A program made the translations under genes and the position numbers. 64,000 bases of DNA from Kribbella sindirgiensis (GTDB taxonomy: Bacteria > Actinomycetota > Actinomycetes > Propionibacteriales > Kribbellaceae). The stretch lies in the NCBI RefSeq assembly GCF_004331435.1, contig NZ_SJKA01000001.1, positions 62,001 through 126,000 on the forward strand. Reading direction: 5' to 3'. Under the pieces are notes generated by a model. The model was not told the DNA's origin, ran no database searches, and was given only the letters and a program-made list of their open reading frames with translations. Each line of letters starts with the position of its first letter. Within the stretch, counting starts at the first letter, position 1. Shown here in pieces: positions 28,808 to 34,804 of this stretch.

Positions 28808-28860
28808 AACAATTGTTTTGCGGAAATGCGTTGACTTCGTTGTGGGTGCTGGGTGAGACT
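28808..28860 (+). promoter_or_regulatory. Palindrome and probable promoter of the tRNA/RtcB cluster
   Basis: AACAATTGTT at 28808-28817 is a perfect 10-bp palindrome in a short AT-rich patch. TTGACT at 28831-28836 is a strong -35 match, and 18 bases later GAGACT (28855-28860) is a usable -10. The leader ORF starts 36 bp downstream. The palindrome could be an operator. Prediction from sequence only. Confidence 0.5.
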
Positions 28861-28895
28861 ATTTCCCGCGAGACCAAGACCTTGAGGAGAAGATC

Positions 28896-29027
28896 GTGTA
28901 CGGAACGCACATCCTGAACGAAGCCTGGCGGCCGGGCCGCGTGGCTTTGTCGGCGTGCCTGCGATCCGTGGGCGACGACACCGCCTACCACCAGCTCAGC
29001 CTGTGCACGGACGGCCCACCTGGGTGA
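28896..29027 (+). CDS. 43-codon leader ORF ahead of the tRNA/RtcB cluster
   Basis: A GTG with TTGAGGAG 7 bp upstream (the best ribosome site in the neighbourhood) opens a 43-residue ORF beginning VYGTHILNEAWRPGRVALSA and ending SLCTDGPPG. No domain was recognised. It is followed at once by two hairpins, the second with a T-tract, and then by the irregular tRNA genes. The order promoter, short ORF, terminator, structural RNA genes resembles an attenuation leader. It contains codons for Trp, Tyr, His, Arg, Pro, Gln and Leu, all amino acids of the downstream anticodons, though in 43 codons this is weak evidence. It could equally be a small protein. Confidence 0.5.
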   Translation: MYGTHILNEAWRPGRVALSACLRSVGDDTAYHQLSLCTDGPPG

Positions 29028-29094
29028 TCTCCGCGTGGAGAGACCTCCAGGAGCCGTCTGAGCCGGGTACCGGCAGCAGGCGGCTCTTTCTTTT
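29028..29094 (+). terminator. Hairpin and intrinsic terminator (possible attenuator) before the tRNA cluster
   Basis: Immediately after the leader stop, TCTCC-GCGT-GGAGA (29028-29041) forms a small hairpin. Then GAGCCG (29051-29056) pairs with CGGCTC (29081-29086), with an inner CTG/CAG and CCGG/CCGG stem, followed by the T-tract TTTCTTTT (29087-29094). GGAG at 29037 can also pair with CTCC at 29045, so alternative folds exist. This is one of very few T-tract terminators in the window, and transcription must pass it to reach the tRNAs unless they have another promoter. Confidence 0.65.
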
Positions 29095-29109
29095 GCCCGA
29101 ACCACGGGC
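29095..29109 (+). other. Hairpin directly upstream of tRNA-like gene 1
   Basis: GCCCG-AACCA-CGGGC, a 5-bp stem ending 4 bases before the tRNA-like gene at 29114. One of five stem-loops in this cluster that sit 2 to 6 bases before a tRNA 5' end; a role in 5' processing is inferred. Confidence 0.5.
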
Positions 29110-29113
29110 CATC

Positions 29114-29182
29114 GCCGATGCGCAATGGTTGCGGACCGGATTCCAAACCCGCGTCATGAGGGTTCGACTCCCTCCATCGGTG
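29114..29182 (+). tRNA. Irregular tRNA-like gene 1 (apparent anticodon CCA, Trp)
   Basis: 69 nt. Acceptor GCCGATG pairs with CATCGGT (one G-U); T-arm GAGGG-TTCGACT-CCCTC is perfect. The D-arm is shortened to a hairpin CGCAA-TGG-TTGCG that takes the place of positions 8 and 9, so U8 is absent. The anticodon arm folds poorly: with CCA at 29143-29145 only three central pairs form, or an alternative GAC-CGG stem with a 9-base loop. No encoded CCA. Either a degenerate tRNA or a specialised tRNA-like RNA; amino-acid identity is uncertain. Confidence 0.55.
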
Positions 29183-29240
29183 CTTTCCGGTATTCACGGA
29201 TATCGGCACGAACAATTGACAACTGGACATTCATCGCATT

Positions 29241-29268
29241 TCTCCCGGCGCCTTGTGGGGCCGGGAGA
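29241..29268 (+). other. Hairpin directly upstream of tRNA-like gene 2
   Basis: TCTCCCGGC (29241-29249) pairs with GCCGGGAGA (29260-29268) around a 10-base loop, ending 3 bases before the tRNA at 29272. A TTGACA at 29216-29221 upstream might be a -35 element for this part of the cluster. Confidence 0.55.
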
Positions 29269-29271
29269 GGA

Positions 29272-29347
29272 CCAGTTGTAGGCCAGCGGCCAGGCCACCT
29301 CATTTGGGTTGAGGAGATCGGGGGTTCGAGTCCCTCCAACTGGACCA
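29272..29347 (+). tRNA. tRNA-Pro-like gene (anticodon UGG)
   Basis: 73 nt plus an encoded CCA. Acceptor CCAGTTG/CAACTGG perfect, U8-A9 present, D-arm GGCC-AGCGGCCA-GGCC, anticodon arm CCTCA-TTTGGGT-TGAGG with UGG at 29305-29307 and U33 present, variable loop AGATC, T-arm GGGGG-TTCGAGT-CCCTC with one G-U. Discriminator A. It is the only member of this cluster that encodes CCA, and its fold is fully credible. Confidence 0.85.
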
Positions 29348-29450
29348 GGCGCCCGCAGGATGCTCAGCTACCGGCCGAGCGAGCGCCACAACCAGGTCGG
29401 CGTCTGCAGCCAGGGGAGGCTCTGGACTGCCGCTGCCGACCCACCCATGC
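29348..29450 (+). other. Structured spacer between tRNA-Pro-like and tRNA-Arg-like genes
   Basis: GGCGC (29348-29352) can pair with GCGCC (29383-29387) around an inner GCTC-loop-GAGC hairpin that looks like a D-arm, and a GCAG/CTGC hairpin follows. There is no T-arm sequence, so no tRNA can be called. It may be a decayed tRNA or another structured RNA. Confidence 0.3.
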
Positions 29451-29489
29451 GCCCTGCGCCGGAAATCCGCAAGACATCCGGCGCAGGGC
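29451..29489 (+). other. Strong hairpin directly upstream of the tRNA-Arg-like gene
   Basis: GCCCTGCGCCGG (29451-29462) and CCGGCGCAGGGC (29478-29489) form a perfect 12-bp stem with a 15-base loop, ending 6 bases before the tRNA at 29496. There is no T-tract, and transcription has to continue into the tRNAs, so a processing signal is more likely than a terminator. Confidence 0.65.
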
Positions 29490-29495
29490 CGGTGA

Positions 29496-29569
29496 ACGCC
29501 CGTGGCTCAACCGGACAGAGCGCCTGCCTACGAAGCAGGAGGGTGCAGGTTCGAATCCTGCCGGGCGTG
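29496..29569 (+). tRNA. tRNA-Arg-like gene (anticodon ACG)
   Basis: 74 nt. Acceptor ACGCCCG/CGGGCGT perfect, U8-G9, D-arm GCTC-AACCGGACA-GAGC, anticodon arm CCTGC-CTACGAA-GCAGG with ACG at 29530-29532, variable loop AGGGT, T-arm GCAGG-TTCGAAT-CCTGC. Discriminator G, no encoded CCA. All stems are perfect. The position-34 A would normally be edited to inosine. Confidence 0.88.
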
Positions 29570-29571
29570 CT

Positions 29572-29645
29572 GTGTCCGAGGCAGAAGCGGGCGATGCGCC
29601 GGGACGTGGCCCCGGAGGAAGCGGGTTCGAGCCCCGCCGGACACC
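29572..29645 (+). tRNA. tRNA-His-like gene (anticodon GUG) with C33 and no U8
   Basis: 74 nt, only 2 bases after the tRNA-Arg-like gene. Acceptor GTGTCCG/CGGACAC perfect, anticodon stem CCGGG/CCCGG perfect, T-arm GCGGG-TTCGAGC-CCCGC perfect, variable loop AGGAA. The anticodon loop is ACGTGGC: GUG at 29606-29608, but position 33 is C (29605) instead of the near-universal U. Position 8 is A. The discriminator is C, the His identity base. No encoded CCA. Confidence 0.75.
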
Positions 29646-29648
29646 CTC

Positions 29649-29683
29649 GAGTACGGCACGCTCACGCAGCGTACGCCGTACTC
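29649..29683 (+). other. Hairpin directly upstream of the UAG-anticodon tRNA-like gene
   Basis: GAGTACGGC (29649-29657) pairs with GCCGTACTC (29675-29683), enclosing a second stem ACGCT/AGCGT. It ends 3 bases before the tRNA at 29687. Confidence 0.6.
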
Positions 29684-29686
29684 CCC

Positions 29687-29760
29687 GCGGCTCTGGCCCA
29701 ACTGGGAGAGGCGCCTGGCTTAGAACCAGGAGGTTCAGGGTTCGAATCCCTGGGGCCGCA
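29687..29760 (+). tRNA. tRNA-like gene with anticodon UAG but a class I body
   Basis: 74 nt. Acceptor GCGGCTC/GGGCCGC with one G-U, U8-G9 present, D-arm with GCC/GGC pairs, anticodon arm CCTGG-CTTAGAA-CCAGG perfect with UAG at 29721-29723, variable loop AGGTT, T-arm CAGGG-TTCGAAT-CCCTG perfect. UAG reads the Leu codons CUA/CUG, but bacterial tRNA-Leu normally has a long variable arm, which is missing here. Discriminator A, no encoded CCA. The charging amino acid is therefore uncertain. Confidence 0.8.
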
Positions 29761-29842
29761 CGGATCAACCGAGACCGACCGACACCGAGATCGCCGACCT
29801 GCTGACCGCGGGTCGGGCACACTGGATGGGAGGAGGAACCAC

Positions 29843-30289
29843 ATGAGCGGTGTGATCGTTCTGAATGCCTCGTACGAGCAGCTGCACGTCGTGTCGATCC
29901 CGCATGCCATCCGGATGCTCGTCCGGGAGGTCGCCGTCGTCGAGGAAGCACATGACGGCGCCAGCATCGGACCGTTCCCCCTCCCCCGCGTCCTGCGTCT
30001 TGTCCGGTACGTCGTGATGAAGTGGCGCTACGCCTCCGGCCGGCTGCAGTACACGCGGGCCGGCGTACTGAAGCGCGACAAGTACACGTGCGCGTACTGC
30101 GGCCAGCTCGGCGCCACCACGATGGACCACGTGATCCCACGATCACGCGGCGGTCGGGGAGAGTGGCTGAACGCCGTCGCCGCGCACGCGCGCTGCAACG
30201 AGAAGAAGGGCTCGCGCACACCGGAAGAGGCCGGCATGCCACTGCGGTGGCAGCCGTGGGTCCCTTCCCGTGCCGAGATAGCGCTCTGA
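29843..30289 (+). CDS. HNH endonuclease inside the tRNA/RtcB cluster
   Basis: 148 residues from an ATG preceded by GGGAGGAGG. The N-terminal part 'SGVIVLNASYEQLHVVSIPH' is the leader domain common to a family of actinobacterial HNH proteins. The nuclease core is 'CAYCGQLGATTMDHVIPRSR', then 'WLNAVAAHARCNEKKG': two CxxC-type zinc knuckle halves, the DH of the catalytic motif and the Asn. It lies between tRNA-like genes on both sides and shares a stop-spanning hairpin (30281-30320) with the next one. The family's substrate is usually DNA; an RNA target here would be speculation. Confidence 0.88.
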   Translation: MSGVIVLNASYEQLHVVSIPHAIRMLVREVAVVEEAHDGASIGPFPLPRVLRLVRYVVMKWRYASGRLQYTRAGVLKRDKYTCAYCGQLGATTMDHVIPRSRGGRGEWLNAVAAHARCNEKKGSRTPEEAGMPLRWQPWVPSRAEIAL

Positions 30290-30320
30290 CGCGACACCCA
30301 CCGGTGCCGCCGACGAGCGC
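30281..30320 (+). other. Inverted repeat spanning the HNH stop and ending just before the next tRNA-like gene
   Basis: GCGCTC (30281-30286) and GAGCGC (30315-30320) flank the HNH stop codon and end 2 bases before the tRNA at 30323. Same placement as the hairpins before other tRNA-like genes in this cluster, though with a longer loop containing CACCGGTG. Confidence 0.4.
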
Positions 30321-30322
30321 GA

Positions 30323-30395
30323 TGCCAGGTGGGCGCCGGTGACCCACCCTCGGTTCTGACCCGAGGCCCCGCAGGTTCGAGCCCTGCCCTGGCAG
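30323..30395 (+). tRNA. tRNA-Gln-like gene (anticodon CUG)
   Basis: 73 nt between the HNH and rtcB genes. Acceptor TGCCAGG/CCTGGCA perfect, U8 present, short D-stem GGG/CCC, anticodon arm CTCGG-TTCTGAC-CCGAG with CUG at 30356-30358 and U33, variable loop GCCCC, T-arm GCAGG-TTCGAGC-CCTGC. Discriminator G, as in bacterial tRNA-Gln. No CCA; the palindrome CTGCATGCAG follows directly. Confidence 0.82.
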
Positions 30396-30424
30396 CTGCA
30401 TGCAGACGAATCGAGGAGGGGAAC

Positions 30425-31615
30425 GTGGAGCTTCCAGTTGAGCTGAGTGGGGCGAAGAGCTCCACCCTGATGTGGGCTCAGGAGTACGACGTCGACGCGA
30501 AGGCCCTGCAGCAGCTGCGGAACATCGCGGCGCTGCCGTGGGTGCACGGCGTCCGGGTGATGCCGGACGTGCACCTCGGTAAGGGCGCGACCGTCGGGTC
30601 GGTGATCGCGATGAACCAGGCCGTGTCGCCGGCCGCCGTGGGCGTCGACATCGGGTGCGGGATGGAAGGTGTCCTGACCTCGCTGACGGCTTCGGATCTG
30701 CCGGACGACCTGTCGGCGATCCGGTCGCGCATCGAGGCCGCCGTACCGGTCGGCTTCCGGGCTCACGAGGACCAGGTCGGCGTACGGCGGCTCGGGCTGG
30801 ACCCGCGTCCGTGGGACAAGCTGTGGGGCGAGTTCACGAGTCTGCACGACGGTGTGCAGGACCGGGAGCGCAAGGCCAAGCAGCAGATGGGGTCGCTGGG
30901 CGGGGGCAACCATTTCATCGAAGTGTGCCTCGATGACGAGGACCGTGTGTGGCTGATGCTGCACTCCGGGAGCCGGAACATCGGCAAGGAGCTCGCGGAG
31001 CGGCACATGCGGATCGCCCGGGACCTGCCGCACAACGCGGATCTCCCGGACCGTGACCTGGCGGTGTTCCTGTCCGGTACGCCGGAGATGGACGCGTACC
31101 GTCGCGACCTCACGTGGGCCCAGGAGTACGCCGCCCGGAACCGGGCCGTCATGCTCGCGCTGGTGATGGAGGCGGTGCGCGGGTCGTTCGAGGTCGACGT
31201 ACGGTTCGAGCAGCCGATCTCGTGCCACCACAACTACGTGGCCGAGGAGCACATCCACGGGCTCAACCTGCTCGTCACCCGCAAGGGGGCGATCCGGGCC
31301 GGGCGTGGCGACCTCGGGCTGATCCCGGGGTCGATGGGCACCGGTTCGTACGTCGTTCGCGGGCTCGGCTCGGAGCGCTCGTTCTACTCGGCCTCGCACG
31401 GGGCAGGCCGGCGGATGAGCCGCAACGAGGCGAAGCGCCGGTTCACCGTGGACGACCTGGTCGCCCAGACGACCGGCGTCGAGTCCCGCAAGGACGCCGG
31501 CGTGATCGACGAGATCCCCGCCGCCTACAAGGACATCGACTCGGTCATCGCCGCCCAGTCCGACCTGGTCGAGGTCGTCGCCCACCTCAAGCAGGTCATC
31601 TGCGTCAAGGGCTGA
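30425..31615 (+). CDS. rtcB: RNA ligase RtcB
   Basis: 396 residues from a GTG with GAGGAGGGG upstream. Key residues are intact: metal-binding Asp75 and Cys78 in 'AVGVDIGCGMEGV', His residues in 'LGGGNHFIEVCLDDEDRVWL', 'LHSGSRNIGKEL' and 'ISCHHNYVAEE', and the guanylylated His in 'SASHGAGRRMSRNEAKRRF'. RtcB joins RNA ends bearing 2',3'-cyclic phosphate (or 3'-phosphate) and 5'-OH using GTP and Mn2+, and can repair tRNAs cut by ribotoxins. It starts 29 bp after a tRNA-like gene and shares its strand with the whole cluster. No archease or RtcA gene is nearby. Confidence 0.97.
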   Translation: MELPVELSGAKSSTLMWAQEYDVDAKALQQLRNIAALPWVHGVRVMPDVHLGKGATVGSVIAMNQAVSPAAVGVDIGCGMEGVLTSLTASDLPDDLSAIRSRIEAAVPVGFRAHEDQVGVRRLGLDPRPWDKLWGEFTSLHDGVQDRERKAKQQMGSLGGGNHFIEVCLDDEDRVWLMLHSGSRNIGKELAERHMRIARDLPHNADLPDRDLAVFLSGTPEMDAYRRDLTWAQEYAARNRAVMLALVMEAVRGSFEVDVRFEQPISCHHNYVAEEHIHGLNLLVTRKGAIRAGRGDLGLIPGSMGTGSYVVRGLGSERSFYSASHGAGRRMSRNEAKRRFTVDDLVAQTTGVESRKDAGVIDEIPAAYKDIDSVIAAQSDLVEVVAHLKQVICVKG

Positions 31616-31616
31616 A

Positions 31617-31655
31617 GAGGTTCCTGCCGTGGTCAGGGGACACGGCAGGAACCTC
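31617..31655 (+). terminator. Terminator hairpin after rtcB
   Basis: GAGGTTCCTGCCGTG (31617-31631) and CACGGCAGGAACCTC (31641-31655) form a perfect 15-bp stem with a 9-base loop, 1 bp after the rtcB stop. No T-tract. It probably ends the main tRNA/HNH/rtcB transcript. Confidence 0.7.
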
Positions 31656-31754
31656 GAGGTGCTCGCTGGTACGTGGTTGTTCGCAGGTGCGCCGAGGGCG
31701 GTGTGGGTAGTTCTTCGGAAGCGGAAGTGCGGCGTCGAGGCCTACCTTGGCGGT

Positions 31755-32579
31755 ATGACGGTGCGCGGGCGGCTGCTGCGAGGTCTGCCGGTCGACGAAC
31801 GGCGGGGCCAGGTCGGCGGTGTGGCGACGGTCGTTCTCGAGGGCGGGGACGGGCCGCCGCTTGTTCTTCTGCACGGCGGTATCGAGTGTGGCGGGGCCTA
31901 CTGGGCGCCGGTGATCCCGCGGCTCGCGGAGCAGCACCACCTCGTCGTACCGGATATGCCGGGGCTCGGGGAGTCCGATCCGGTCGCTCGACTGGACCAG
32001 CCGACCTTCGACGACTGGCTGAAGGCGCTGCTCGAGCTGTGCGATCAGCCGCCGACCTTGATCGCGCACTCGCTCGTCGGGACGTTGGCGGCGCGGTTCG
32101 CGGCGACTCACCCCACGCGCCTGCAGCGGTTGGTGCTGTACGGCGTACCCGGGATTGGACCGTACCGGATGCCGATCGGGCTGCGGGGGATCGCTGTCCG
32201 GTTCGCGCTGCGCCCGTCCGCGGCGAACATGGAACGCTTCGAACGGTGGGCTTTCGCCGATCTCGACGCCGTACGACGCCGCGCACCGGACTGGATGGAC
32301 GCCTTCAGCACCTATACGCGCAGCCGCGCCCGCGTACCGCACGTCAAGCGGACGATGCGTTACCTGGTCGCCACCTGCACCAAACAGATGCATGACCGGA
32401 TCGACGTCCCCACGACGCTGATCTGGGGTGCGCAGGACCGCTTCGTACCGCTGGCCCTCGCCGAGGAGGCCGGCCGCAGGCTTGGCTGGCCGCTCAAGGT
32501 GATCGACGACGCCGGGCATGTCCCGCACATCGAGCGACCCGGCGCGTTCCTCGAGGAAGTCACACGAACGCCGCGCTGA
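31755..32579 (+). CDS. Alpha/beta hydrolase
   Basis: 274 residues from the ATG at 31755. There is no ribosome site, but TACCTT lies 7 bases upstream like a -10 box, so the mRNA may be leaderless. The oxyanion strand is 'PPLVLLHGGIECGGAYWAPV', the nucleophile elbow 'TLIAHSLVGTLAA' (Ala-His-Ser-Leu-Val-Gly, the first Gly of GxSxG replaced), then 'TTLIWGAQDRFVPLALAEEA' with the acid Asp and 'DDAGHVPHIERP' with the His. A complete triad, so an active esterase or similar enzyme is expected. Its link to the tRNA genes is positional only. Confidence 0.85.
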   Translation: MTVRGRLLRGLPVDERRGQVGGVATVVLEGGDGPPLVLLHGGIECGGAYWAPVIPRLAEQHHLVVPDMPGLGESDPVARLDQPTFDDWLKALLELCDQPPTLIAHSLVGTLAARFAATHPTRLQRLVLYGVPGIGPYRMPIGLRGIAVRFALRPSAANMERFERWAFADLDAVRRRAPDWMDAFSTYTRSRARVPHVKRTMRYLVATCTKQMHDRIDVPTTLIWGAQDRFVPLALAEEAGRRLGWPLKVIDDAGHVPHIERPGAFLEEVTRTPR

Positions 32580-32605
32580 GGAACCTCCCGATCCCCGAGG
32601 CCAGT

Positions 32606-32998
32606 GTGGCCGGGATCGCGGCCGGGTTCGCGCTCGAGCAGCTCCATCCGTGGTGTGTCAGACGACGGCCCGGCGGATGGGCGCTGATCGCCGCCGGCGG
32701 CATCGTCATCGCGGGCGCCGTGCGGGCAGCCGCAACCAACGACCTCGCGAGGCCCGAACGGCTCGTCACCAGCGGGCCGTATGCGCTGAGCCGGAATCCG
32801 ATGTACGTCGGCTGGTTCATGGCGCAGGTGGGGATCGGGCTGGTGACCGGCTCCGGCTGGGTGCTGGCGACGTTGCCGGCCGTCGGGGCGGGGCTGCACC
32901 GGGACGTCGTCCGTGAGGAACGGCGACTGGCCCGGAGCTTCGGGGACGAGTACGAGCGCTACTCGGAGAAGGTCGGTCGCTACCTCCCCAGGCGATGA
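32606..32998 (+). CDS. Isoprenylcysteine carboxyl methyltransferase-like membrane protein
   Basis: 130 residues from a GTG, a short version of the ICMT/phospholipid methyltransferase family. Two or three hydrophobic segments, then the family motifs 'LVTSGPYALSRNPMYVGWFM' and 'REERRLARSFGDEYERYSEK' with the conserved Glu-Glu and final 'VGRYLPRR'. It probably methylates a small lipid or prenylated acceptor with SAM. The stop codon is followed immediately, with no spacer, by the tRNA-Tyr-like gene, so the tRNA must be cut out of a longer transcript. Confidence 0.82.
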   Translation: MAGIAAGFALEQLHPWCVRRRPGGWALIAAGGIVIAGAVRAAATNDLARPERLVTSGPYALSRNPMYVGWFMAQVGIGLVTGSGWVLATLPAVGAGLHRDVVREERRLARSFGDEYERYSEKVGRYLPRR

Positions 32999-33082
32999 GC
33001 AGGAGCGCCGCCGCTGGAGGGGCGGGGCGGGCTGTAAACCCGTTGCCTTCGGGCCTAGCAGGTTCGAATCCTGCCTTCTGCA
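32999..33082 (+). tRNA. tRNA-Tyr-like gene (anticodon GUA), class II, no U8
   Basis: 84 nt, starting at the base after the preceding stop codon. Acceptor GCAGGAG/CTTCTGC with one G-U; D-arm CCGCC-GCTGGAGG-GGCGG; anticodon arm GCGGG-CTGTAAA-CCCGT with GUA at 33034-33036; long variable arm with GCC-TTCG-GGC, as expected for bacterial tRNA-Tyr; T-arm GCAGG-TTCGAAT-CCTGC. Position 8 is C rather than U. Discriminator A, no encoded CCA. Confidence 0.82.
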
Positions 33083-33134
33083 CGCAGGACTGCACAGCTA
33101 TGACAACAGATATGACAAGAGAGGAGGACCGGCC

Positions 33135-33329
33135 ATGGCCGACCTCAGGAACAGGAAGCGAGTGCCTGGCGGCAGGACCGGTGCTCCGGTCCAGCAGGGT
33201 CACTCGATGCGCCGCGTGCTGCTCGCCTGCGGGCATGTGCAGCGCGACCGAATCGCCCACCGTGGAGATCACGTCTGGTGCGAAGCCGACTGCTCCGACT
33301 GGATCCGCGTGGTCTCGGTCCAGGAGTAG
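33135..33329 (+). CDS. Small Cys/His protein in the tRNA cluster, unknown function
   Basis: 64 residues from an ATG with GAGGAGG 8 bp upstream. A basic N-terminus (MADLRNRKRVPGGRTG) is followed by a compact part with 'RRVLLACGHVQRDRIAHRG' and 'HVWCEADCSDWIRVV'. Cys-Gly-His and Cys-x3-Cys could bind one zinc ion. No family recognised. It lies between two tRNA-like genes on the same strand; the basic tail and zinc-ribbon look would suit nucleic-acid binding, but that is inference. Confidence 0.7.
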   Translation: MADLRNRKRVPGGRTGAPVQQGHSMRRVLLACGHVQRDRIAHRGDHVWCEADCSDWIRVVSVQE

Positions 33330-33376
33330 TCAGCACCAGGGCCGGCAGTGTCCCGCAACGGCCGGCCTAGTACCCA

Positions 33377-33408
33377 TAACCCTCCCCAAACCAGTTTGGG
33401 GAGGGTTA
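33377..33408. terminator. 15-bp perfect inverted repeat after the small Cys/His gene
   Basis: TAACCCTCCCCAAAC (33377-33391) and GTTTGGGGAGGGTTA (33394-33408) form a near-continuous hairpin 48 bp after the preceding stop. Without a T-tract but with an AT-containing long stem; likely terminator for the upstream genes. Confidence 0.65.
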
Positions 33409-33463
33409 GCGGGACACGTCGTCGTGTGGGCGTACGGCGTCTGGTCGGTGCGCTGCGCGTATT

Positions 33464-33532
33464 CCCCCTGGTGACGGATTCTCGCCGGGCCCTCCGAAGG
33501 CTCGGTTCCTGGTTCGACTCCGGGCAGGGGGA
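33464..33532 (+). tRNA. Irregular tRNA-Arg-like gene (anticodon CCG), 69 nt, no positions 8-9
   Basis: Acceptor CCCCCTG/CAGGGGG perfect. The D-arm GTGA-CGGATTC-TCGC follows the acceptor with no linker, so positions 8 and 9 are absent. Anticodon arm GGGCC-CTCCGAA-GGCTC (one G-U) with CCG at 33494-33496 and U33; variable loop GGTT; T-arm CCTGG-TTCGACT-CCGGG with one U-G. Discriminator A, no CCA. The 3' end abuts the stop codon of the convergent fucosidase gene. The same total length as irregular gene 1. Confidence 0.68.
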
Positions 33533-34804
33533 CTACAACAGTGGATCGAAGTGGACGGACAAACTCACTTCGGCATCAGCGCGCGCCGAGAGGATGCGGA
33601 GGCGTACGTCGTTCACCGTGACAGGCGACTCCAGCGGGAGGAGCCGGCGGTGGCCGATCGTTGTTCCACGGGCGATCTCCTGCCAGGACCCGTCGACCAG
33701 ACCGTCCACAGCAAACGACTCGACCTGCTGACCGGCCGTGATGTCCTCGCGCAGATCGACCACGTTGACCTCACCCGGCAGCGCGACAGGCGTGTCGTAG
33801 TACTGCCGCACAGCCGCACCGAAGGCGGTCAGCGCCTCGACGTCCGGATCCGCGAACAGCCCGCGCCGGTCGGGCGGGATGTTCAGCAGCAGTACGGCGT
33901 TCCGCCCGACCGACTTGCGATAGATGTCCAGCAGTTCCGGCACGGACTTCACCGCCGTGTCCTCGGCCGCGTGGTAGAACCACCCGGGCCGGATCGACAC
34001 GTCTACTTCAGCGGGATACCACCGCAACTCGTCAGCGCGAGCCAACTCCTCCGGGCCGGCCACAGACGCCGCGGTCTGCTCAGCCACCATCTGCCCGTTG
34101 AGGAACGGTACGACGCTCCACTCCGTCTCCCGCGCGAACCCGTCCTCGTTCCCGACCCATCGCACGTCCGGCCCGCCGATCGCGATCGTCGCGTCGGGGG
34201 CCAGCCGCCGAATCAGGTCGAACCAATCGTCATAAGAATAGGTCTGCGCACTGTGAGTCGGATTGGCCCCGTCCAGCCAGACCTCGGCGATCGGCCCGTA
34301 CGACGTCAGTAGTTCGTGCAACTGCTGCATGTAGAACCGGTTGTAGTCGTCGACCACGTACGTGAACTCGCCGATCTGCGCGGAAACCGCTGGACTCCCG
34401 TTTCCGTAGTACCCGCCCGGCGCCTTCTCCTGATAGAGATCGGCCGGCGACAGGTACACCCCGAACCCGAGTCCGCCGGCCTCACAAGCCGCGGACAGCT
34501 CACCCACGACGTCGCGACCGAAGCCGGCGGAAACCGTGTGCGGAAGGTACTTGCTGGGCCACAAGCAGAAGCCGTCGTGGTGCTTGGCCGTCAGGATCAC
34601 GCTCTTGAATCCCGCGGACACCAGCGCGGCAACCCATTGCGAGCAGTCCAGCGACGACGGAGCGAACGCCGCCGGATCGTCGACGCCGGTCCCCCACTCC
34701 AGGTCCGTGAACGTGTTCGGCCCGAAGTGCACGAACGCGGTCAGCTCCTGCCGCTGCCACGCGAGCTGCCGCGGCGACGGGCGGACGGCGGAGGGATCGA
34801 TCAC
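33533..34804 (-). CDS. Alpha-L-fucosidase, GH29 family
   Basis: 423 residues, no signal peptide, so cytosolic. GH29 hallmarks: 'LTAFVHFGPNTFTDLEWGTG' at the N-terminus, 'SVILTAKHHDGFCLWPSKY', and 'IAEVWLDGANPTHSAQ' with the catalytic nucleophile Asp; 'NAVLLLNIPPDRRGLF' closes the barrel, then a C-terminal beta domain. It is the last gene of the nine-gene minus-strand operon, overlapping the FAD-oxidase gene by 4 bp. It would release L-fucose from imported oligosaccharides, which points to a fucose-type pathway for the operon. Confidence 0.9.
   Translation of the reverse strand: MIDPSAVRPSPRQLAWQRQELTAFVHFGPNTFTDLEWGTGVDDPAAFAPSSLDCSQWVAALVSAGFKSVILTAKHHDGFCLWPSKYLPHTVSAGFGRDVVGELSAACEAGGLGFGVYLSPADLYQEKAPGGYYGNGSPAVSAQIGEFTYVVDDYNRFYMQQLHELLTSYGPIAEVWLDGANPTHSAQTYSYDDWFDLIRRLAPDATIAIGGPDVRWVGNEDGFARETEWSVVPFLNGQMVAEQTAASVAGPEELARADELRWYPAEVDVSIRPGWFYHAAEDTAVKSVPELLDIYRKSVGRNAVLLLNIPPDRRGLFADPDVEALTAFGAAVRQYYDTPVALPGEVNVVDLREDITAGQQVESFAVDGLVDGSWQEIARGTTIGHRRLLPLESPVTVNDVRLRILSARADAEVSLSVHFDPLL

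What the first reader, a model, noticed from the sequence alone, without database searches (positions are those of the whole stretch)
28808..33532. Locus that mixes eight divergent tRNA-like genes with RtcB and an HNH nuclease
Seen: one strand carries tRNA-like genes with apparent anticodons CCA, UGG, ACG, GUG, UAG, CUG, GUA and CCG, interleaved with HNH, rtcB, an alpha/beta hydrolase, an ICMT-like gene and a small Cys/His protein, while a normal tRNA-Thr lies just outside on the other strand. Known: RtcB reseals RNA cut to 2',3'-cyclic phosphate and 5'-OH, the ends left by ribotoxins, and toxins such as colicin D (Arg tRNAs), colicin E5 (Tyr, His and others) and some VapC/MazF proteins hit tRNAs of several of these identities. 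Inference: the locus supplies spare or decoy tRNAs plus a ligase to survive tRNA cleavage, or is an RNA-damage sensing island.
Basis: partly seen in the sequence, partly recalled or inferred. Interest (0 to 1): 0.93.

Follow-up and report, generated by a model that had tools for sequence, protein, structure and literature searches.

The report
Stress-inducible tRNA backup-and-repair locus
All 38 genomes examined of the bacterial genus Kribbella carry a cluster of unusual spare tRNA genes with a nuclease gene and, in nearly all, an RNA-repair ligase gene, behind a promoter and an RNA switch that are predicted to turn it on when protein synthesis stalls, so it likely helps the cell survive attacks on its tRNAs or ribosomes.

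Summary
The eight tRNA genes, HNH and rtcB are real. The cluster is in 38 of 38 Kribbella genomes examined; rtcB is intact in 36, in pieces in one, absent from one. Hydrolase and ICMT genes are variable passengers (9 and 12 of 38). The tRNAs keep their stems through compensatory changes, differ from housekeeping isoacceptors in D-arm, anticodon-arm length and position 37, and each isoacceptor has a normal copy elsewhere. A strict promoter pattern occurs four times in the own genome: here, before a second HNH gene, before an APH-family gene, and once with no clear gene. The leader holds a near-invariant CGA codon (35 of 38), which only tRNA-Arg(ACG) would read; that tRNA is in every array. Best reading: predicted translation-stress-induced supply of replacement tRNAs plus RNA repair. 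tRNA-cutting toxins are one plausible trigger, not shown. New variant of a known kind (HNH-linked tRNA arrays; Anabaena trn operon).

The parts
28823..28860 (+). WhiB7/WblC-type promoter: GAAAT box, 3 nt, TTGACT, 18 nt, GAGACT
   Evidence: 37 of 38 Kribbella loci carry AAAW-N3-TTGAC; 33 of 38 pass a stricter test that has 4 background hits in about 2.3 Mb of non-Kribbella loci; 4 strict matches in the 8.9 Mb own genome
28896..29027 (+). leader ORF (43 aa, GTG start, TGA stop inside the antiterminator); near-invariant TGC-CTG-CGA block at 28956-28964
   Evidence: open in 38 of 38; other frames open in 6 and 23 of 38; CGA in 35 of 38; coordinates
29009..29059 (+). predicted antiterminator hairpin; its 5' arm is the end of the leader ORF, its 3' arm is the terminator's 5' arm
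   Evidence: forms in the nascent RNA fold in 38 of 38; mean z -3.3
29050..29094 (+). predicted intrinsic terminator with T run
   Evidence: folds in 38 of 38 when the antiterminator's 5' arm is blocked; mean z -5.0
29114..29182 (+). tRNA-Trp(CCA)-like, very short D-arm and extended anticodon helix
   Evidence: Rfam 28.2 bits; ARAGORN-called in 14 of 38 genomes; 9 of 22 pairs with both-side changes
29272..29347 (+). tRNA-Pro(UGG), CCA encoded
   Evidence: 34 of 38 genomes
29496..29569 (+). tRNA-Arg(ACG), A37
   Evidence: 38 of 38 genomes; A37 in 38 of 38
29572..29645 (+). tRNA-His(GUG)-like, C33, no G-1
   Evidence: 38.7 bits; 29 of 38 genomes; T at -1 in 29 of 29, C33 in 16 of 29
29687..29760 (+). 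tRNA-Leu(UAG), A37
   Evidence: UAG in 21 and CAG in 6 of 38 genomes; A37 in 7 of 22 UAG copies
29843..30289 (+). HNH nuclease gene
   Evidence: PF01844 5e-11; 38 of 38 genomes at 88-100% identity; purifying selection
30323..30396 (+). tRNA-Gln(CUG), A37
   Evidence: 38 of 38 genomes, A37 in 38 of 38
30425..31615 (+). rtcB, 3'-P/5'-OH RNA ligase gene
   Evidence: PF01139 1e-123; intact in 36 of 38, in pieces in one, absent in one; the only RtcB found in this genome
31617..31655 (+). 15-bp perfect hairpin just after rtcB, possibly a U-less terminator or processing signal
31755..32579 (+). alpha/beta hydrolase, variable passenger
   Evidence: PF00561; 9 of 38 genomes
32606..32998 (+). PEMT/ICMT-like methyltransferase, variable passenger
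   Evidence: PF04191; 12 of 38 genomes
32999..33083 (+). tRNA-Tyr(GUA), long D-stem and variable arm
   Evidence: 23 of 38 genomes
33135..33329 (+). 64-aa Cys/His protein, predicted metal-binding
   Evidence: 38 of 38 genomes; 20 hits in the protein database, the four whose source names an organism are Kribbella; no Pfam
33462..33533 (+). tRNA-Arg(CCG)-like, no D-stem in the consensus fold, 8-bp anticodon stem, A37
   Evidence: 23 of 38 genomes; consensus fold

Best explanation
The locus is a Kribbella gene cluster, found in 38 of 38 genomes examined, of redundant, structurally divergent tRNAs with an HNH nuclease gene and usually an rtcB ligase gene, which is predicted to be switched on by translation arrest through a WhiB7/WblC-type promoter and a ribosome-sensing attenuator and would then likely restore translation with replacement tRNAs and RNA repair. 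Predicted control: WhiB7 with the main sigma factor starts transcription. If the ribosome reaches the leader stop codon it covers the antiterminator's 5' arm, the terminator forms, and the locus stays off. Predicted output: tRNAs whose anticodon loops and arms differ from the housekeeping ones, so that they may escape the nucleases or enzymes that hit those, while RtcB reseals RNA with cyclic-phosphate/5'-OH ends. Shown: the parts, their conservation, the tRNA structures, the motif and its rarity. Inferred: WhiB7 dependence, attenuation, co-transcription, charging of the tRNAs, RtcB substrate. The HNH role is open; likely part of the response or a former homing enzyme kept with the array.
For: Fixed locus: HNH 38 of 38, small Cys protein 38 of 38, RtcB matches 37 of 38 (36 intact), beside a - strand tRNA-Thr(CGU) in 36 of 38, the other two loci lying close to a contig end. 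tRNAs: paired cells 96-100%, compensatory changes in 11 of 11 groups; all eight isoacceptors also have a normal copy; locus Arg-ACG, Gln-CUG and Arg-CCG are A37 in 38/38, 38/38 and 23/23, where the own genome's housekeeping copies show G37. Promoter; the strict pattern has four matches in 8.9 Mb, of which one is here, one lies upstream of the second HNH gene (the site is there in 21 of 21 genomes looked at) and one upstream of an APH-family gene. The own whiB7 gene has a weaker site of the same layout (box 4 of 6), a 65-codon leader ORF and a terminator hairpin. Attenuator: leader ORF, terminator and nascent antiterminator each 38 of 38, z-scores. CGA at a fixed place in 35 of 38, against 4.2% of Arg codons in HNH+RtcB; no anticodon UCG found in the own genome. 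Same layout (site, leader ORF, terminator) in 13 of 17 selected Micromonosporaceae rtcB loci, at a site threshold with 0.03 expected hits per 2.2 kb. WblC directly regulates six tRNA genes in S. coelicolor (PMC7157823, passages and section 9); cutting of tRNA-Ser(CGA) by VapC5 goes with strong whiB7 induction (PMC10287673, passages).
Against: No expression data. The leader peptide shows no codon-level constraint as a whole (positional heterozygosity 0.36/0.35/0.38), frame +2 is open in 23 of 38, and its codon use is relaxed in general (AGA+AGG 12% of Arg codons against 0.5%), which weakens the CGA argument. With the terminator's 3' arm present the minimum-energy fold keeps the terminator in 37 of 38 (L172 is the exception), so antitermination depends on folding during transcription. 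Covariation at the antiterminator base is weak: 1 of 8 pairs with a both-side change. Five of 38 Kribbella loci fail the stricter site test. Outside Kribbella that stricter site lies upstream of rtcB in only 16 of 106 loci, none of the 31 in the Nocardia group. RtcB is in pieces in one genome and absent in another while the rest remains; ten of 38 genomes have a second, distant RtcB. HNH relatives in 11 class-level genomes have neither tRNAs nor the site, and 65 of 76 non-Kribbella RtcB loci have no default-level tRNA within 1.5 kb. tRNA-His lacks G-1 in all 29 and U33 in 16 of 29, so it may not be charged. The 38 genomes are one genus, not independent.
Confidence: 0.6

Rival explanations
1. 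A domesticated remnant of a phage or plasmid tRNA array, kept mainly because the HNH gene is a homing endonuclease that protects or spreads the array; tRNAs and RtcB have little present function.
For: Relatives of this HNH sit inside or near tRNA arrays of Microbacterium phage Cece (23 tRNAs, RNA ligase and RtcB nearby) and of one Mycobacterium, one Nostoc, one Tsukamurella and one Pseudarthrobacter plasmid (17-28 tRNAs in the stretches fetched). PMC5966550 (passages) calls HNH the most widespread coding gene in mycobacterial arrays.
Against: Same neighbour in 36 of 38 genomes, strong purifying selection on HNH, RtcB and the Cys protein, compensatory changes in the tRNAs, and a conserved control region. 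This explains origin better than present use.
Confidence: 0.2
2. Antibiotic-response supply of ordinary tRNAs: WhiB7 raises tRNA supply to keep translation going under ribosome-targeting drugs, with no link to tRNA cleavage; RtcB repairs other RNA such as rRNA or does nothing specific.
For: WblC-type promoter; six tRNA genes in the S. coelicolor WblC regulon (PMC7157823, passages); the Anabaena trn operon is induced by translation-targeting antibiotics (PMC10272220, abstract).
Against: The tRNAs are not ordinary: altered D-arm, longer anticodon helices, A37; rtcB is intact in the locus in 36 of 38 genomes; a general supply would not need a near-fixed CGA codon in the leader.
Confidence: 0.3
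3. tRNA-like decoys or sensors: at least some locus tRNAs are not charged and serve as bait for tRNA-cutting toxins or as signals.
For: His-like tRNA lacks G-1 (29 of 29) and often U33 (16 of 29); Trp-like and Arg-CCG-like have reduced D-arms.
Against: In the window the discriminator base equals that of the housekeeping copy in 7 of 8 (Arg-CCG has A for G); acceptor and T stems are kept; U33 is in all but one copy at most of every other group.
Confidence: 0.15

Closest known systems
Anabaena PCC 7120 trn operon and TrcR regulon (PMC10272220; outline, abstract and passages read)
   Same: Redundant tRNA genes induced by translation stress; rtcB and HNH genes under the same regulator
   Different: 26 tRNAs on a megaplasmid, rtcB on the chromosome, TrcR repressor of the RHH family; here a fixed cluster with rtcB inside, a predicted WhiB7-type activator site and an attenuator
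tRNA array units of mycobacteria, their phages and plasmids (PMC5966550, PMC12803027; passages read)
   Same: HNH gene embedded, redundant anticodons, structural differences in D-arm and anticodon arm
   Different: Those units have 20 or more tRNAs and occur on chromosomes, phages and plasmids; here 8 tRNAs, fixed in a genus, with rtcB and a conserved leader
WblC/WhiB7 regulon with leader-ORF attenuation (PMC7157823, PMC10287673; passages read)
   Same: GAAAWY box 3 nt before the -35; translation stress; some tRNA genes in the regulon; uORF attenuation of whiB7 itself
   Different: rtcB does not occur in the main text of PMC7157823; the one listed paper with both words is on feather degradation (listing only)
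Salmonella rsr-yrlBA-rtcBA repair operon (PMC7790460; abstract and outline read)
   Same: RtcB, response to broken tRNAs
   Different: Regulator RtcR binds tRNA fragments directly; no tRNA genes are named in the abstract; here predicted sensing by ribosome stalling
Phage tRNAs that evade anticodon nucleases (PMC10264068; abstract and Results read)
   Same: Extra tRNAs with altered anticodon loops
   Different: Phage-encoded; here a host locus, and no nuclease has been tested

Membership tests
tRNA array unit (mobile type) | 20 or more tRNA genes at high density | tested here: not met
   8 tRNAs in 4.4 kb; definition from a passage of PMC5966550
tRNA array unit (mobile type) | HNH gene embedded and anticodons redundant with the rest of the genome | tested here: met
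tRNA array unit (mobile type) | found at differing places or on mobile elements | tested here: not met
   same neighbour tRNA-Thr(CGU) in 36 of 38 genomes, the other two close to contig ends
WhiB7/WblC regulon | A/T-rich GAAAWY-like box 3 nt upstream of the -35 | tested here: met
   5 of 6 box matches or better in 33 of 38; 4 background hits in about 2.3 Mb
WhiB7/WblC regulon | whiB7 gene with AT-hook in the genome | tested here: met
   L202, RPRGRPRK tail (that this marks WhiB7 is recalled)
WhiB7/WblC regulon | transcription depends on WhiB7 | not testable with these tools
   needs RNA-seq or ChIP
Ribosome-mediated transcription attenuator | leader ORF ending in an antiterminator that competes with a terminator | tested here: met
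   predicted in 38 of 38 for each element; at equilibrium the terminator wins in 37 of 38
Ribosome-mediated transcription attenuator | read-through rises when leader translation is arrested | not testable with these tools
   needs reporter assay
RtcB RNA ligase | full-length family match with catalytic Cys and His motifs | tested here: met
   PF01139 1-426 of 426; Cys and His motifs in register with an RtcB-family structure (residue roles recalled)
rtcBA repair operon (RtcR type) | RtcA and RtcR encoded beside rtcB | tested here: not met
   no such domains among the 8 proteins scanned in and around the locus; rest of genome not searched
Anabaena trn/TrcR system | TrcR-type repressor control | not tested
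   no search for TrcR was made

The most novel reading that the evidence does not exclude
The leader is a codon-specific tRNA-integrity sensor: ribosomes would stall at its near-invariant rare CGA codon when tRNA-Arg(ACG) is cut or unmodified, and the released locus then supplies a cleavage-resistant tRNA-Arg(ACG) and other replacement tRNAs plus RtcB, a bacterial operon that senses the loss of a tRNA and makes its own spare.
Probability: 0.25. Interest if true: 0.9.

Novelty: new variant of a known kind. Interest (0 to 1): 0.74.

Why it matters
It would tie three things usually studied apart - spare tRNA arrays, RtcB RNA repair and the WhiB7/WblC antibiotic response - into one predicted circuit, and gives a testable answer to what rtcB is for in some actinobacteria. 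It also suggests that host genomes, not only phages, keep divergent tRNAs against attacks on translation.

Tried and rejected
Hydrolase and ICMT as core parts: rejected, 9 and 12 of 38 genomes. Decaying pseudo-tRNAs: rejected by compensatory changes, with the caveat that the structures counted there were predicted from the same alignments and that the consensus folds of Leu, Ser(CGA), Glu and Arg(CCG) are not clean cloverleaves. Codon supplementation as the sole reason: every anticodon in the window is already covered. HNH-tRNA linkage as a class-wide rule: not supported; HNH relatives at E <= 1e-35 in 12 of 148 class genomes including the own one, and the other 11 have no default-level tRNAs or site in the 7-8 kb fetched. 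HNH-RtcB linkage in that class sample: no case outside the own genome by coordinates (drafts, E limits 1e-35 and 1e-60). WhiB7-type sites in four plasmid arrays and phage Cece: no clear site among scattered weak matches. Special pairing as the reason for the conserved TGC-CTG-CGA block: 0.68 against 0.65 for the region. Leader enriched in codons of the array's amino acids: only 47% against 39%. A first promoter pattern with too narrow a gap gave an unclear result for Micromonosporaceae and was replaced. RNAalifold of the antiterminator's apical part gave no stem there, probably because the alignment is ambiguous. A simple consensus scan finds no sigma-70 promoter and not the leader terminator, likely because that hairpin has an internal loop.

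Full report
What is there. The window lies in a genome inferred to be Kribbella (RtcB 98-99% identical to K. pratensis and strain VKM Ac-2569; window = G000:C11:62001-126000). The + strand of 28823-33533 carries a promoter, a leader, five tRNA genes (Trp, Pro, Arg-ACG, His, Leu), HNH, tRNA-Gln, rtcB, two passenger genes, tRNA-Tyr, a 64-aa Cys/His ORF and tRNA-Arg(CCG). The tRNA-Thr on the other strand is ordinary (72.3 bits).

Conservation. The locus HNH is found in 38 of 38 genomes of the family held (one genus) at 88-100% identity; a second HNH, 74-77% identical to it, occurs elsewhere in all 38. I fetched all 38 loci. tRNA-Arg(ACG), tRNA-Gln(CUG), HNH and the Cys protein occur in 38 of 38; tRNA-Pro(UGG) 34, Ser(GCU) 31, His 29, Tyr 23, Arg(CCG) 23, Leu(UAG) 21 or (CAG) 6, Ser(CGA) 19, Glu(CUC) 15, Trp 14; hydrolase 9, ICMT 12 (ARAGORN permissive mode, which can both miss odd tRNAs and call false ones). 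RtcB is intact in 36, in pieces in one (L153) and absent from one genome (L162/G019); the own genome shows no other RtcB, while ten of the 38 have a second, distant one. Codon-position heterozygosity shows purifying selection on HNH (0.05/0.03/0.30, n 38), RtcB (0.06/0.04/0.26, n 36) and the Cys protein (0.11/0.07/0.35, n 37).

The tRNAs. In 11 of 11 groups 96-100% of base-pair cells stay paired and every group has at least one pair with a both-side change; the structures were predicted from the same alignments, and four groups do not give a clean cloverleaf. Trp has a 4-bp D-stem with a 3-nt loop and a 6-bp bulged anticodon helix; Arg(CCG) has no D-stem in the consensus fold and an 8-bp anticodon stem; Gln and Tyr have 6-bp anticodon stems. 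Arg(ACG), Gln and Arg(CCG) have A37 in all copies, where the housekeeping copies of the own genome have G37; Pro keeps G37 in 34 of 34. Every isoacceptor has a normal copy in the own genome. In the window the discriminator base equals the housekeeping one in 7 of 8. The His-like gene has T at -1 in 29 of 29, where the housekeeping gene has G, and C33 in 16 of 29.

The control region. Upstream of the first tRNA, 37 of 38 loci carry AAAW-N3-TTGAC followed at a nearly fixed distance by a -10-like element, with a variable spacer. This is the layout published for WblC (GAAAWY 3 nt before the -35; PMC7157823, passages). With a 5-of-6 box test 33 of 38 pass, against 4 background hits in about 2.3 Mb of non-Kribbella loci; upstream of rtcB outside Kribbella the same test gives 0 of 31 (Nocardia group), 7 of 29, 3 of 16 and 6 of 30 loci. 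In the own genome the strict pattern GAAAW-N3-TTGAC-N17-20-KANNNT has four matches and its reversed control none: this locus, the second HNH gene (93-96 nt upstream; 21 of 21 genomes looked at have the site), an APH-family ORF (starting 43 nt after the site's start), and one with no clear gene. The own whiB7 gene has a weaker version (box 4 of 6), a 65-codon leader ORF and a terminator hairpin.

The leader ORF (42-59 aa) is open in 38 of 38; the two other frames in 6 and 23. Its stop lies in TGATC in 37 of 38. The RNA of its last codons pairs with the terminator's 5' arm when the 3' arm is not yet made, in 38 of 38; the terminator folds in 38 of 38 when that 5' stretch is blocked; mean z-scores -3.3 and -5.0. 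Against this: no codon-level constraint on the peptide as a whole, weak covariation at the antiterminator base, 1 of 8 pairs, and at equilibrium the terminator wins in 37 of 38, L172 being the exception. One block is nearly fixed: TGC-CTG-CGA, with CTG in 35 and CGA in 35 of 38, 20-37 codons before the stop; CGA is 4.2% of Arg codons in HNH+RtcB of the same loci, but AGA and AGG are also commoner in the leader than in those genes; the block is not more paired than its surroundings. The own tRNA set shows no UCG anticodon, so CGA should depend on tRNA-Arg(ACG) (wobble rule recalled).

Beyond the genus. One search kept the best 80 RtcB loci of a capped list; of its 76 non-Kribbella loci, 11 have default-level tRNAs within 1.5 kb of rtcB: nine Micromonosporaceae, and single calls in Nocardia alba (overlapping the end of rtcB) and an Arthrobacter. 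Only Rhizocola (L076) also has the HNH in the stretch. A family sample (f38, inferred Micromonosporaceae) has this RtcB in 52 of 121 genomes; of the 30 best loci fetched, 9 have default-level tRNAs in the stretch and one (L232) has 18 tRNA calls, 17 at default, within 4.2 kb. In 17 such loci that I picked because they had tRNAs or a site, 13 (12 of 15 after merging two apparent duplicates) have site, leader ORF and terminator in the same order; one of the 13 (L218) has no default-level tRNA. The box threshold there was 4 of 6, for which the same loci elsewhere give 0.03 hits per 2.2 kb. Relatives of the HNH lie in or near tRNA arrays on one Nostoc, one Mycobacterium, one Tsukamurella and one Pseudarthrobacter plasmid and in Microbacterium phage Cece, which also has an RtcB-like ligase; of the eight plasmid and phage regions fetched (of 72 and 84 records with a match), one Curtobacterium and one Nonomuraea region have no tRNAs and phage Mimi has four. 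In 11 class-level chromosomes the HNH has no tRNAs nearby.

Reading. The parts and their conservation are shown; induction, attenuation, charging and repair are inferred. The most economical account is a translation-stress module that likely descends from, or shares parts with, mobile HNH-tRNA arrays and is now predicted to be wired to WhiB7. Cutting of a tRNA goes with strong whiB7 induction in M. abscessus (PMC10287673, passages), so tRNA attack and antibiotics would both fit. In print: searches with RtcB+WhiB7 (one paper, on feather degradation by its title), RtcB+HNH+tRNA+Streptomyces (5 papers), rtcB+tRNA genes+actinobacteria+WhiB7 (11 papers), tRNA array+HNH+rtcB (20 of 43 listed), Kribbella+tRNA array+RtcB+tRNA operon (4 papers) and tRNA array+WblC/WhiB7+attenuation (10 of 25 listed) list nothing whose title or abstract start describes this combination; only the held open-access library was searched, and which six tRNA genes WblC controls in S. 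coelicolor I could not see (the supplement was not available).

Noticed in passing
G000:C11:203891-204421 (L149, L244): A second HNH gene of the same family, without tRNAs in the 6.4 kb fetched, also has a WhiB7-type site about 93 nt upstream, in 21 of 21 Kribbella genomes looked at.
   Followed up: partly
L245 (G000:C44:1641, - strand): An APH-family phosphotransferase ORF starts 43 nt after the start of another strict WhiB7-type site.
   Followed up: partly
window 31617-31655 and 33370-33415: Strong hairpins without a T run after rtcB and before tRNA-Arg(CCG); possible U-less terminators or processing signals.
   Followed up: no
L239 (Microbacterium phage Cece): 23 tRNAs with the same HNH family embedded, a second RNA ligase and RtcB nearby: a phage counterpart of the locus.
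   Followed up: partly
L232: An inferred Micromonosporaceae locus with 18 tRNA calls (17 at default) within 4.2 kb around rtcB.
   Followed up: partly
L162 (G019) and L153 (G002): RtcB lost or in pieces while tRNAs, HNH, leader and promoter remain.
   Followed up: no
window 29569-29572: tRNA-Arg(ACG) and the His-like tRNA are only two bases apart in the window; the His-like gene is preceded by the same 'gct' in all 29 genomes in which it was called.
   Followed up: no
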